Source: Lachnospiraceae bacterium (GTDB taxonomy: Bacteria > Bacillota > Clostridia > Lachnospirales > Lachnospiraceae). From it: a stretch of 64,000 nt of DNA. The notes under the pieces were generated by a model, which saw nothing but the letters and a program-made list of their open reading frames with translations, was not told the DNA's origin and made no database searches. A program made the position numbers and the translations under genes. Positions 23,088-26,174 of the stretch are shown here, piece after piece. Position 1 is the stretch's first letter. Each line of letters begins with the position of its first letter. Location of the stretch: assembly GCA_017935565.1 (NCBI GenBank), contig JAGBHK010000002.1, positions 1-64,000 on the forward strand. Direction: 5' to 3'.

Positions 23088-23459
23088 TTACTCCTCACAT
23101 ATAATCTCTAGCATTTCCTTTAATTCCTTATCTGAAATGCCCGCTAACCTTGCTTTTTCTTTTGCTTCCATAAACAAGCTTTCTATTTGTCGCAGATTTT
23201 CTTCCTTTAGAAATTCCTTATTCTGTGCCTTTACAAAGCTTCCTTTTCCTGTGTAGGATTCAATAAATCCATCCCTCTCCAAGTCTTCATAAGCTCTTTT
23301 GGTTGTAATGACACTTATCCTAAGAGCAGCTGCTAGATTTCTCATAGACGGAAGAGCGTCCCCTTCCTTTAATTCCCCTGACATAATCATTGCCTTAATC
23401 TGGGATGTAATCTGCTCATAAATAGGTTCGCCTGTGGAATTTGAAATAATAATGTCCAT
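23088..23459 (-). CDS. GntR family regulator, YtrA type
   Basis: A 123-residue repressor. The winged-helix domain PIYEQITSQIKAMIMSGELKEGDALPSMRNLAAALRIS and TKRAYEDLERDGFIES is classic GntR; the tail after it is only about 50 residues, which puts it in the YtrA subfamily that controls ABC transporters. I start at 23459 with AGGTGG just upstream; the longer open frame upstream crosses promoter sequence and is not coding. It should bind the palindromes around its own promoter and control the whole downstream exporter operon. Confidence 0.9.
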   Translation of the reverse strand: MDIIISNSTGEPIYEQITSQIKAMIMSGELKEGDALPSMRNLAAALRISVITTKRAYEDLERDGFIESYTGKGSFVKAQNKEFLKEENLRQIESLFMEAKEKARLAGISDKELKEMLEIICEE

Positions 23460-23479
23460 TTGCCACCTCTTTTTATAAT

Positions 23480-23516
23480 TGTATATATACGATATATACA
23501 TTATACATATTGTATA
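23480..23516. promoter_or_regulatory. GntR/YtrA-type operator pair
   Basis: A perfect inverted repeat, TGTATATAT-ACG-ATATATACA (23480-23500), and a second one, TATACA-TAT-TGTATA (23502-23516), sit on and just downstream of the -10 box of the regulator promoter. Binding there would block transcription. The A/T-rich TGTATA...TATACA form suits YtrA-type regulators. Confidence 0.75.
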
Positions 23517-23528
23517 TATACATGTCAA
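23500..23528 (-). promoter_or_regulatory. Promoter of the GntR-ABC exporter operon
   Basis: Perfect TTGACA (23523-23528), a 17-bp spacer and perfect TATAAT (23500-23505) on the minus strand, overlapped by the operators. A strong promoter that would need repression. Confidence 0.88.
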
Positions 23529-23536
23529 GAGAAAAA

Positions 23537-23565
23537 TGGTCTGGTAAGATATTCTTACCAGACCA
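23537..23565 (-). terminator. Terminator upstream of the GntR promoter
   Basis: TGGTCTGGTAAGA and TCTTACCAGACCA form a perfect 13-bp stem with a 3-nt loop, followed by TTTTTCTC on the minus strand. It insulates the exporter promoter from minus-strand transcription coming from the HTH fusion gene. Confidence 0.88.
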
Positions 23566-23610
23566 CAAACATTTTGTTTTAATATGAAAATGAATCCCTT
23601 ACATCTATTC

Positions 23611-23639
23611 TTGACAAAATAATATATATATGATAAATT
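23611..23639 (+). promoter_or_regulatory. Putative promoter of small RNA unit 1
   Basis: TTGACA (23611-23616) on the plus strand, then 17 bp and a weak TAAATT (23634-23639). The expected start falls at about 23646, just where the unit 1 stem begins (23647). Confidence 0.55.
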
Positions 23640-23646
23640 CCTTTCG

Positions 23647-23712
23647 AAAGAAGGAACGATGTTTTTCACCGTACAGTTTTTACTCAAGCGGGTTGCACGT
23701 TCCTTCTTTTTT
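23647..23712 (+). ncRNA. Candidate small RNA, tandem unit 1
   Basis: A 12-bp perfect stem (23647-23658 with 23698-23709) closes a 39-nt loop and runs into six T residues (23707-23712), like a terminator that is the whole transcript. Loop positions 10-34 (23668-23692, beginning ACCGTACAG and ending CAAGCGGG) are identical to those of unit 2, 102 bp away. The stem sequence differs from that of unit 2 while keeping its pairing, with both arms gaining matched bases. A TTGACA box lies 36 bp before the stem. The family is not recognised. It could also be a relic of a duplicated 3' end of the neighbouring gene. Confidence 0.55.
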
Positions 23713-23716
23713 AGAC

Positions 23717-23743
23717 TTGACAATTTATCTTTTCTATTATAAT
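23717..23743 (+). promoter_or_regulatory. Putative promoter of small RNA unit 2
   Basis: TTGACA (23717-23722) and TATAAT (23738-23743) on the plus strand. Both boxes are perfect, but the 15-bp spacer is short; TAATAT at 23740 would give 17 bp. The expected start is at about 23750, next to the unit 2 stem (23752). Confidence 0.6.
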
Positions 23744-23751
23744 ATTTCTAT

Positions 23752-23812
23752 AAAGAAGCGGGTTTTACGACCGTACAGTTTTTACTCAAGCGGGCTACTC
23801 GTTTCTTTTTTT
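23752..23812 (+). ncRNA. Candidate small RNA, tandem unit 2, antisense to the HTH fusion gene 3' end
   Basis: AAAGAAGCG (23752-23760) pairs with CGTTTCTTT (23800-23808; one G-U pair) around a 39-nt loop, the same loop length as unit 1, and runs into seven T residues (23806-23812). The 25-nt core at 23770-23794 is identical to unit 1. From 23782 on, the unit is antisense to the last codons and stop of the HTH fusion gene, and the conserved core itself covers the codons for its final SPLE and the TAA. Both RNAs could therefore pair with that mRNA. Confidence 0.55.
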
Positions 23813-24531
23813 GTTCTCAAAAAATCATATAGATACATTTTTCCATCACTATCACATCTTACCAACATCCTTAACTTAAAAATGTTATAACTAATTAAGT
23901 TGCCTACATCATCATATACTGGCAAAGCCAACCTTGTATCATAACGATACCAGCCAAATCTAGCTTTATTTTTATGTTTTGAATTATGATCAGGTGCGCT
24001 TGTCTTGTTAGTTGCAATTTGAATCAATTCTCCAACTGCTTGCGATGCATTTGCTTTAGCCTTAGCATTAGGTCCCCTAAGTATTAATCTATCTTTTGCA
24101 TGAACAAATTCATCAGGAAAATCTGTTCCTATATAAATCTTCTCCGCCGTTTCTGCTATTTCATAACATTTTCCCACATATTCCTTCAAATACTCTTCAA
24201 TTTCTTCCCATTCTTCTCTCCTCTTACCTTTAAACCTTATATCATTAATCAACACAATTTTCTTTCCATCAACATCCGTAATAATATTTACATTGCCATT
24301 CTCTATTTTTTCACTTTTCTTTTCCTTGTTTATTTTTTCATACTCAGCCTTATATAACATAAGCCTCAATAAATATGTAGGCATCTTTCTCTTCTTTGCT
24401 TCCCAATCCTCAACTGTACGAAGAGGAATACCATAATATTCGGCAAACTCTTTACGGCTCAGCCCCATATCCTCTCTAAGCTTTTTCAATTCTTTTTCTT
24501 GTATAACCAATTCTTCCACCCTATTTTCCAT
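23782..24531 (-). CDS. HTH protein fused to a phage-type toxin-like C-terminal domain
   Basis: A 249-residue fusion. Residues about 14-70 are a helix-turn-helix of the Lachnospiraceae regulator type (KKLREDMGLSRKEFAEYYGIPLRTVEDWEAKKRKMPTY split over the motif). A Lys/Glu-rich linker follows, then a domain with YIGTDFPDEFVHAKDRL, RGPNAKAKANASQAVGELI, HKNKARFGWYRYDTRLALPV and MYLYDFLRTKKETSSPLE. I associate this C-terminal pattern with the phage barnase/EndoU/colicin-E5/RelE-like (PBECR) domains of large phage proteins; confidence in that is moderate. An antitoxin-like DNA binder joined to a toxin-like domain would be autoregulated, and the promoter carries matching palindromes. The tandem RNA units lie antisense to its 3' end. 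Confidence 0.7.
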   Translation of the reverse strand: MENRVEELVIQEKELKKLREDMGLSRKEFAEYYGIPLRTVEDWEAKKRKMPTYLLRLMLYKAEYEKINKEKKSEKIENGNVNIITDVDGKKIVLINDIRFKGKRREEWEEIEEYLKEYVGKCYEIAETAEKIYIGTDFPDEFVHAKDRLILRGPNAKAKANASQAVGELIQIATNKTSAPDHNSKHKNKARFGWYRYDTRLALPVYDDVGNLISYNIFKLRMLVRCDSDGKMYLYDFLRTKKETSSPLE

Positions 24532-24574
24532 TTAAATTTATCCTCCTTTTTTAATATGTTACGCATTGCGTGGT

Positions 24575-24591
24575 TTGATATATTTTATCAA
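24575..24591. promoter_or_regulatory. Palindromic operator of the HTH fusion gene
   Basis: TTGATA-TATTT-TATCAA is a perfect inverted repeat covering the -10 box. A second palindrome, ACGCA-T-TGCGT (24561-24571), follows at the expected transcription start. Both are good autoregulatory sites for the HTH domain of the product; this is inferred from position. Confidence 0.6.
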
Positions 24592-24610
24592 TCTACTATT
24601 TATATGTCAA
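24582..24610 (-). promoter_or_regulatory. Promoter of the HTH fusion gene
   Basis: TTGACA (24605-24610), 17 bp and TAAAAT (24582-24587) on the minus strand, about 50 bp before the start codon. Confidence 0.8.
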
Positions 24611-24656
24611 CAAAAAAATTGCCACATCAGTCAATAGCCAACGCAGCAACTTTATA

Positions 24657-26174
24657 TTAATCCTCAATCTTATCCATTATCATCTTTTTCGCCCTATATC
24701 TAGAAACATTAAACTCTCTGATACCCATATCCTCTGTGTCAACTAACGCATTTTTCATATGTATATATCCGCACTGGTCTGAATTAGTCCGTACATATCC
24801 AATATTCTTAAGGTAATAACCCTTTATAACACTACCTTTATCTTCCATCCACTCTATGATAACTGGTGTCGCATCCGCAGACAATTCTTCAAACAAATAA
24901 AAATCATTATAAACCGCACCCTTAAAAAATACGCTTCTCGTCTCCTTACTACCTTCTACATTTACCTTCGCAATCCAGTAATCAGGCTTGGCAAATGCAA
25001 GAACAATGTAAAGGCAAGTCACAACCACCATACTATAGCGAAAAAGAGGAAATGTATCTGTAAATATGTATATCATAACTCCTATAAACACAAGAGCAAG
25101 CACTACCAGACTCCACAACACAAGTATTCTTAAAAATGTAAGATAATAATACTGAATATAAATTATCATTCTAAGAGCACTTGAAGCAATCATTATAAAT
25201 GTGCAAATAGACATTACTGCAAGTATCCCCTTAAATAGTTTGTTTGGCTTGAAGTAACACAAGCAAACCAGAACAATAATCAAATTCAATATACTTACCG
25301 CAAGAAGTTGAAAAAATCCCTCTCTTGCATATTCAGCATATGTGTAACCATCAGGCAGTTCCATATTTCCCATAAACAAATAAACTATCTGAATCACACT
25401 AAAGACAAGATATAGCACTGTCATAATTAATGCCATCGGAATAGCTATAAGAGGTTCCATATTTTTCTTATCAGAAACTTCTTCTATCAATTCTTTCTTC
25501 GCAGTGTAACACATAATACTGTATGTCACAACAAACATAAGACCAATCCTAAATCCAATAGAAATCATTGCAGATAAACTAAATCCTTCAAATATACCAT
25601 CGGCAAAATTTCTAAATACCACATCGGCACTTGAAAGCATTGCAAACACTACTACAAATAAAGGAATTGTAATCACTATGCCAACAACCACATAGAAAAC
25701 ATTACTATTTTTACTGCTCATTTTATTTTTACAATACCACAAAAAGTCACCAAATGGATTAAATATTTCACCAATAGACATTAAAAATACATTCAGTATT
25801 GAATTAAAATATTTCCCCAAGGTCCACTTTTTGGTATCATATATAATATCTAACACAAAACAGATGGTTAACAATAGCACTCCACATTTGTTAAAAAATA
25901 TAATTTTATCATCATCCGTACAAAATGTTGCAATAGATAATAACATTATACTTGTTATATAAAAAATACTCACCCTCTTTAGCTTAAACTCAAGCTTTTT
26001 AGCAAAAAACATTATCAATGCAATAGTCCCCACACTATATAATGCATATGTAATACCAGCATCATTGTCATACATACAAAATGCAAACAAGCACGCATAT
26101 AAAAATACTGCAACTCCGTATATATGAAAATTTTCCTTTATCTTTCCTATATATAAATTTCTCTCCTCGTTCAT
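24657..26174 (-). CDS. DUF4173-type polytopic membrane protein
   Basis: A 505-residue membrane protein with about 12 hydrophobic segments and a C-terminal soluble tail of about 95 residues. The segment VVFAMLSSADVVFRNF and the segment order match what I remember of DUF4173 proteins, whose function is unknown. It follows an HTH regulator gene (16-bp gap) and a DUF2975 membrane protein, suggesting a three-gene unit in which a small Xre regulator controls two membrane proteins. A weak hairpin and T-run follow the stop codon. Confidence 0.78.
   Translation of the reverse strand: MNEERNLYIGKIKENFHIYGVAVFLYACLFAFCMYDNDAGITYALYSVGTIALIMFFAKKLEFKLKRVSIFYITSIMLLSIATFCTDDDKIIFFNKCGVLLLTICFVLDIIYDTKKWTLGKYFNSILNVFLMSIGEIFNPFGDFLWYCKNKMSSKNSNVFYVVVGIVITIPLFVVVFAMLSSADVVFRNFADGIFEGFSLSAMISIGFRIGLMFVVTYSIMCYTAKKELIEEVSDKKNMEPLIAIPMALIMTVLYLVFSVIQIVYLFMGNMELPDGYTYAEYAREGFFQLLAVSILNLIIVLVCLCYFKPNKLFKGILAVMSICTFIMIASSALRMIIYIQYYYLTFLRILVLWSLVVLALVFIGVMIYIFTDTFPLFRYSMVVVTCLYIVLAFAKPDYWIAKVNVEGSKETRSVFFKGAVYNDFYLFEELSADATPVIIEWMEDKGSVIKGYYLKNIGYVRTNSDQCGYIHMKNALVDTEDMGIREFNVSRYRAKKMIMDKIED

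What the first reader, a model, noticed from the sequence alone, without database searches (positions are those of the whole stretch)
23605..23815. Tandem promoter-hairpin-terminator RNA units antisense to an HTH/toxin-like gene
Two units 102 bp apart each have a TTGACA box, a start expected at the stem base, a stem, a 39-nt loop and a T-run. Loop positions 10-34 are identical, while the stems differ yet keep pairing (perfect 12 bp in one, 9 bp with one G-U in the other). The conserved core is complementary to the last codons and stop of the adjacent HTH fusion gene, so both RNAs could pair with its mRNA, unit 2 in cis and unit 1 in trans. This recalls 3'-overlapping RNA antitoxins such as RatA/TxpA, but here the partner is a DNA-binding protein with a phage toxin-like domain. 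Caveat: read on the minus strand, unit 1 also encodes KKEGTCNPLE-stop, much like the gene's own KKETSSPLE-stop, so it may be a relic of a duplicated gene end.
Basis: partly seen in the sequence, partly recalled or inferred. Interest (0 to 1): 0.78.

Follow-up and report, generated by a model that had tools for sequence, protein, structure and literature searches.

The report
Hairpin RNA antitoxin facing its toxin
Many bacteria of a common gut family appear to carry a short folded RNA, with its own promoter, that faces and overlaps the end of a toxin-like gene and probably keeps that toxin harmless; it matches nothing in the standard RNA catalogue and may be a new kind of RNA antitoxin.

Summary
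In detail: two promoter-hairpin-terminator units lie at 23611-23712 and 23717-23812 (+), sharing an identical 25-nt core. They belong to a structured RNA family spread through the window's bacterial family (Lachnospiraceae, inferred from named relatives); the stretch matches no Rfam family. Fifty-nine aligned RNAs share an outer stem, a middle helix and an inner hairpin with compensatory changes (0 of 500 shuffles reach the covariation). 118 of 528 outer-stem cells are G-U, so the plus strand is the selected RNA. The partner is a domain of about 170 residues, related to a domain of phage polyvalent proteins (LPD3-like, below threshold); the HTH is an optional fusion. Of 88 distinct full-length, non-polyvalent domain genes, 86 have the RNA at the 3' end; the two exceptions lost conserved parts. 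Conversely the RNA often survives where the gene is a stub or gone. That asymmetry marks a toxin and an antitoxin. Because unpaired bases outside the coding overlap are conserved and orphan RNAs keep their fold, I favour an RNA that binds the toxin protein (type III-like) over plain antisense (type I-like). Toxicity, transcription and binding are untested.

The parts
23611..23639 (+). promoter of RNA unit 1 (TTGACA-17-TAAATT)
23647..23712 (+). RNA unit 1 (solo extra copy): 12-bp outer stem, middle helix, inner hairpin, T-run
   Evidence: model R1 61.3 bits; its sequence is one of the 59 used to build R1
23668..23692 (+). 25-nt core of unit 1, identical to unit 2
23717..23745 (+). promoter of RNA unit 2 (TTGACA-17-TAATAT)
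   Evidence: a promoter at this place recurs in relatives
23751..23812 (+). RNA unit 2 (cognate copy): outer stem with G-U pairs, inner hairpin, T-run; overlaps the last codons and stop of the toxin-like gene
   Evidence: model R1 69.2 bits; also among the 59 of R1
23770..23794 (+). 25-nt core of unit 2; complementary to the last codons, stop and 3' UTR of the gene
23782..24531 (-). toxin-like gene, 249 aa: N-terminal HTH_3 (residues 15-50) plus C-terminal LPD3-like domain (about residues 76-249), tail KKETSSPLE-stop antisense to unit 2
24561..24571 (.). palindrome ACGCATTGCGT near the expected start of the gene's transcript, possible operator for the gene's own HTH
   Evidence: same motif, or part of it, at other HTH-fused homologues
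24582..24610 (-). probable promoter of the toxin-like gene (TTGACA-17-TAAAAT, 11 of 12)
23536..23566 (-). 14-bp terminator-like hairpin, a possible end of the gene's transcript; if so both units lie opposite its 3' UTR
   Evidence: termination there is inferred

Best explanation
A toxin-antitoxin locus. The minus-strand gene makes an RNase-like toxin domain (here fused to an HTH that may repress its own promoter). A strong, facing promoter makes a roughly 60-nt hairpin RNA, the antitoxin, ended by its own terminator; its 3' half is antisense to the toxin's last codons. I think the folded RNA acts mainly by binding and blocking the toxin protein, as ToxI does to ToxN, with base pairing to the toxin mRNA and transcription collision as secondary effects. 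The window carries a second, solo RNA copy that keeps the core and has drifted in its stem. Shown by sequence: RNA family, fold, promoter-like boxes, near-obligate link, survival without the gene. Inferred: transcription, toxicity, RNase activity, protein binding.
For: Structure: RNAalifold on 59 RNAs found 14 pairs, 9 with changes on both sides; covariation 0.318 against 0.212 +/- 0.008 shuffled, 0 of 500; slid versions at most 0.118; 4 of 4 inner-hairpin pairs have a both-sided change. Strand: 118 of 528 outer-stem cells are G-U (summed), A-C on the other strand. Link: of 88 distinct full-length, open, non-polyvalent domain genes, model R1 finds the RNA at 86 (many of these RNAs helped to build R1), an independent hairpin descriptor at 84; exceptions L188 (C-terminus lost) and L203 (deletion of the KAKAN...H block). 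Promoter: boxes matching at least 9 of 12 in 80 of those 84 hairpins against 1 of 31 hairpins among 173 other ORF ends. RNA without toxin: of 64 RNA hits examined, 20 have no toxin codons outside the RNA and 30 only a stub of up to 60 codons; 33 of 111 RNA-bearing genomes have no listed domain match (upper bound), 13 no protein match at all. Tandem RNA copies recur (L161, L176, L177). Protein-binding reading: unpaired, non-coding positions are conserved (two U of the 5' internal loop and GUA, 59 of 59 in A2), although a cis-antisense RNA stays complementary to its target whatever its sequence.
Against: No expression or toxicity data. No toxin family reaches threshold: LPD3 touches 10 of 44 members, best E 0.0026, and L184 with 22.4 bits against a cutoff of 27. 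Solved structures: best hits are ribosomal protein eL39 (E 0.0019), which I take for chance composition; structure prediction was off. GUA is not universal: absent in L062, L068, L070 (left out of A2), L140, L185, L186, L187, L207 and L216. Orphans were found with a model that rewards pairing, so their intact stems are partly ascertained. Orphan pair L169/L170 is too similar to show purifying selection. Cores within one genome are no more different than random pairs (588 of 2000 draws as low), so cognate insulation is not shown. L022 keeps the hairpin but has no good -35. Cis complementarity to the mRNA is complete for unit 2, so antisense action cannot be excluded.
Confidence: 0.55

Rival explanations
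1. Type I-like antisense antitoxin: the RNA pairs with the 3' end of the toxin mRNA and sends it to RNase III, as RatA does to txpA; unit 1 helps in trans through the shared 25 nt.
For: Unit 2 is fully complementary to the last codons, stop and 3' UTR; the 25-nt core is identical in both units. RatA and txpA overlap at their 3' ends by about 120 nt (PMC3531473, passages seen). [quoted passage not shown]
Against: Pairing needs no conserved sequence or inner hairpin; yet helices covary and unpaired non-coding bases are conserved. The RNA is present in 13 genomes with no protein match at all, several of them incomplete. TxpA and YonT are hydrophobic peptides of 59 and 58 aa (passages); this domain has about 170 residues with conserved polar positions.
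Confidence: 0.25
2. The hairpin is only a two-way terminator between convergent genes, with a fortuitous promoter.
For: Ends in a T-run; sits at a gene end.
Against: Promoter boxes at a fixed distance in 80 of 84 against 1 of 31 control hairpins; G-U asymmetry favours the plus strand and the inner hairpin covaries; persistence without the gene.
Confidence: 0.07
3. Unit 1, and the orphan copies, are decaying relics of duplicated or deleted gene ends without function.
For: 30 of 64 RNA hits sit beside a gene stub; unit 1 on the minus strand still reads like the gene's tail (ORF 23088-23723); no orthologue comparison shows purifying selection.
Against: Orphan stems are intact (275 of 282 cells paired, shuffled mean 261.9, 0 of 1000, with the ascertainment noted); unit 1 has a perfect 12-bp stem different from unit 2 and its differences avoid the core. 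Among the listed domain fragments that I checked, those without RNA and not at a contig end are three: L188, L203, L227; weaker fragments were cut from the list and not checked.
Confidence: 0.12
4. The RNA has its own cellular role (for example a regulator of other genes) and the overlapping protein is secondary.
For: RNA occurs without a listed domain match in up to 33 of 111 RNA-bearing genomes.
Against: Full-length protein genes were found without it only in 2 of 88, both damaged, and gene stubs show that the pair came first.
Confidence: 0.08

Closest known systems
Type III toxin-antitoxin systems (ToxIN, CptIN, TenpIN)
   Same: Small structured RNA as antitoxin; RNA repeated in tandem; toxins are endoribonucleases (PMC5086642, passages). 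CptIN was described from Eubacterium rectale (PMC4627078, abstract start in a listing), a Lachnospiraceae member by recall.
   Different: In type III the RNA repeats and toxin share one promoter, RNA upstream, terminator between (PMC5086642, passages). Here the RNA is downstream on the opposite strand, has its own promoter and terminator, and overlaps the toxin's codons; no ToxN homology was found.
txpA/RatA and yonT/SR6 type I systems
   Same: Antisense RNA from its own promoter, overlapping the toxin's 3' end (PMC3531473, passages).
   Different: Those toxins are 58-59-aa hydrophobic peptides and txpA mRNA is degraded through RatA and RNase III; here a larger domain and a compact covarying hairpin that outlives the gene.
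LPD3 / PBECR domains of phage polyvalent proteins (PMC5512222, passages)
   Same: The domain occurs inside ORFs of 1192-2745 aa on six viral contigs, L210-L215.
   Different: Model R1 finds no RNA beside those six; the forms with RNA are solo or HTH-fused; the domain does not reach the LPD3 cutoff.

Membership tests
Type III toxin-antitoxin | RNA antitoxin binds the toxin protein | not testable with these tools
   conservation of unpaired non-coding bases is only indirect
Type III toxin-antitoxin | bicistronic operon, RNA repeats upstream of toxin on the same strand, terminator between | tested here: not met
   RNA is downstream, opposite strand, own promoter-like boxes
Type III toxin-antitoxin | toxin homologous to ToxN/CptN/TenpN | tested here: not met
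   no such family among hits: window protein in Pfam, NCBIfam, PADLOC, 44 members in Pfam, profile against PDB sequences; by sequence only
Type I toxin-antitoxin (txpA/RatA-like) | antisense RNA gene with own promoter overlapping the toxin gene | tested here: met
   by layout only; transcription not tested
Type I toxin-antitoxin (txpA/RatA-like) | toxin is a short hydrophobic peptide | tested here: not met
   domain of about 170 residues with conserved polar residues
Type I toxin-antitoxin (txpA/RatA-like) | inhibition through pairing with the mRNA | not testable with these tools
   complementarity is automatic in cis
LPD3 (PF18798) | Pfam gathering score | tested here: not met
   best 22.4 bits against 27; 10 of 44 members with E <= 0.1
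[quoted passage not shown]
   His111 invariant in the 44 of A1, but Thr169 is Ala or Asn in divergent members; fold not predicted
Known Rfam RNA | match at gathering score | tested here: not met
   window 23400-24700 against 4227 families: on the units best 18.2 bits against a gathering score of 55.8; relatives were not scanned

The most novel reading that the evidence does not exclude
A new class of RNA-antitoxin system: a facing, self-promoted hairpin RNA, perhaps a mimic of the RNA that the toxin cuts, woven into the last codons of an RNase toxin and neutralising the protein; genomes keep the RNA after losing the toxin, as immunity against incoming or phage-borne (polyvalent-protein) versions of the domain.
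Probability: 0.3. Interest if true: 0.92.

Novelty: new variant of a known kind. Interest (0 to 1): 0.8.

Why it matters
A conserved RNA element is present in 111 of 397 sampled genomes of one bacterial family, and the window's copies match no Rfam family. If it is an antitoxin, it combines the layout of type I systems with the probable action of type III, shows how an RNA gene can dictate the tail of a protein, and gives a direct test of whether orphan antitoxin RNAs protect against phage-borne toxins.

Tried and rejected
Viral contigs with the single window protein: none; plasmids: none; phages: six unannotated records, one of them with the C-terminal domain. First 3'-end control gave hairpins at 41 of 150 ORF ends, 16 with promoter >=9; it drew ORFs from loci centred on RNA units and did not mask orphan RNAs, so I replaced it (173 ORF ends, 31 hairpins, 7 with promoter >=8, 1 with >=9). 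The first census held one duplicate (L205) and counted polyvalent ORFs; recounted. The descriptor is not perfect: it also fired on 3 of the 6 polyvalent ORFs (L212 with 9 of 12 in the boxes, L214, L215) and on L188, none of which has a model hit. The 100 promoters were pre-selected (at least 9 of 12, spacer 17; the spurious L212 among them), so their box conservation (TTGAC 0.97-1.00; spacer 0.44) is partly built in; I rest on 80 of 84 against 1 of 31 instead. Cores within genomes: no signal. Orphan orthologues L169/L170: uninformative. In one search a reverse-strand cross-hit of L135 was counted as an orphan; recounted. One search's hand-made list of genomes with a domain match left out G121 (checked as L203). 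In one search the added pair 24-58 forms in none of the 59 rows. Considered and dropped: RNA as the toxin (orphan RNAs would then be lethal); GUA as a tRNA-Tyr anticodon mimic (not universal, untested). Left out of A2: 9 of 67 distinct units (L006, near-duplicate; L051, L053, L059, L060, L062, L068, L070, L071, short cores); L062, L068 and L070 lack GUA.

Full report
What is there. The window holds two plus-strand units, each with TTGACA-17-box, a hairpin beginning about seven bases after the -10, and a T-run. They share 25 identical bases and differ at 13 of 60 positions, none inside those 25. Unit 2 overlaps the last codons and stop of a 249-aa minus-strand gene; unit 1 lies beyond it. The loop folds further into a middle helix and an inner hairpin.

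It is a family. The 24-base core occurs exactly in 21 stretches of other genomes; 12 of the 21 titles say Lachnospiraceae, one says Muribaculaceae, the rest name other or wider groups. Searching with the gene found matches in 200 of 397 genomes of the same family, HTH-only matches included. In 90 rows with the C-terminal part (some the same locus in two collections) the RNA hairpin can be read at the 3' end of the gene; my automatic trimming failed for 2 of the 90 (L022, which lacks a good -35, and one copy in L066). I aligned 58 of 67 distinct units plus window unit 1 (A2).

The RNA is selected as RNA. RNAalifold, given no structure, returned outer stem, middle helix and inner hairpin, with both-sided changes at 9 of 14 pairs. 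With the named structure, covariation is 0.318 against 0.212 in shuffles (0 of 500) and at most 0.118 in slid versions. G-U pairs make up 118 of 528 outer-stem cells, so the minus strand could not fold equally well. Unpaired columns of the non-coding 5' half are conserved, GUA in 59 of 59 of A2; but GUA is missing in L062, L068 and L070, which I had left out of A2, and in L140, L185, L186, L187, L207 and L216. Promoter boxes: at least 9 of 12 in 80 of 84 toxin-linked hairpins against 1 of 31 control hairpins; one search shows nearly invariant boxes beside a spacer at 0.44, on a set pre-selected for good boxes.

The partner. The C-terminal domain (about 170 residues, 20 invariant columns in 44 sequences) stands alone or follows different HTH-like N-termini (read by eye apart from the window's own). 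It touches LPD3 of Pfam below threshold. The same domain sits within very long ORFs on six viral contigs, L210-L215, with no model hit for the RNA; six other viral contigs, L204-L209, carry the short gene with the RNA (L205 repeats L013). In 391 genomes of the class, 10 matched: 7 in the window's family, the window's own among them, and 3 elsewhere, the latter within ORFs over 1000 aa. Many HTH-fused genes carry ACGCA(A/T)TGCG or part of it at the promoter, which suggests autorepression.

Full-length gene hardly ever without RNA, RNA often without gene. Of 144 unique domain matches, 95 were full-length, open and not at a contig end; one was a duplicate and six are the polyvalent ORFs L210-L215, leaving 88 genes in 86 loci. 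Model R1 finds the RNA in 84 of the 86 loci, at 86 of the 88 genes (many of those RNAs helped to build R1, but divergent ones such as L184-L187 and L216 did not). The hairpin descriptor agrees at 84 and misses L207 and one copy in L066. The exceptions are L188, which has lost its C-terminus, and L203, which lacks the KAKAN...H block. R1 hits none of the six polyvalent ORFs. In the other direction, R1 hits 111 of 397 genomes. I fetched 60 stretches, chosen mainly because no domain match lay beside the RNA; of 64 RNA hits there, 20 have no toxin codons outside the RNA (1 at a contig end), 30 a stub of at most 60 codons (4 at a contig end), 14 more. At genome level 33 of 111 have no listed domain match and 13 no protein match at all; the match list was truncated, so 33 is an upper bound. 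Eleven genomes with a listed domain match had no model hit and all were looked at: G037, G270, G335 and G349 have a divergent RNA, G273 and G343 have one, G184 and G372 end at the contig edge, G286 (L188), G171 (L227) and G121 (L203) hold damaged or partial genes.

Reading. This asymmetry is the signature of a toxin and its antitoxin: the toxin is kept only with the RNA, the RNA is kept alone. Gene stubs show that many orphans come from loss of the toxin. Why protein binding rather than antisense: an RNA transcribed opposite its target stays complementary whatever its sequence, so antisense action alone does not require a covarying inner hairpin or conserved unpaired bases in the 3' UTR. The tail of the protein changes with the RNA type (SSPLE, TGKSCQT, SNSLGE), as if the RNA dictated it. 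This is inference; the decisive test is rescue of a recoded toxin. Tandem copies (window; L161, L176, L177) recall the repeats of type III RNAs.

Novelty. No Rfam family matched the window stretch near its gathering score and PADLOC gave only weak hits to the HTH part. Paper searches that turned up no description of such a system: (listings with titles and abstract starts only, apart from passages of PMC5512222, PMC5086642 and PMC3531473); subscription papers and preprints were not searched.

Noticed in passing
window 24561-24571; upstream of L025-L030, L032, L054-L056, L066, L203, L207: Palindrome (C)ACGCA(A/T)TGCG(TG), or part of it, at the promoters or first codons of HTH-fused genes, sometimes twice: possible operator of the fused HTH.
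   Followed up: partly
window 23088-23459 (-) and 23480-23522: GntR-family regulator before ABC transporter genes; its promoter (12 of 12 consensus) lies in an inverted repeat of TGTATATATAC type, a possible operator.
   Followed up: no
L210-L215: The same domain sits within ORFs of 1192-2745 aa on viral contigs, without a model hit for the RNA; orphan RNAs might act against such proteins.
   Followed up: partly
L161:1626-1813; L176:2211-2583; L177:2016-2207: Other tandem RNA copies; L161 apparently has three units with a 62-nt period, the middle one read by eye.
   Followed up: partly
L185-L187, L216: Divergent domain (KKEAS tail) with a divergent RNA core (CCA...UGG) lacking GUA: perhaps a second subfamily.
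   Followed up: no
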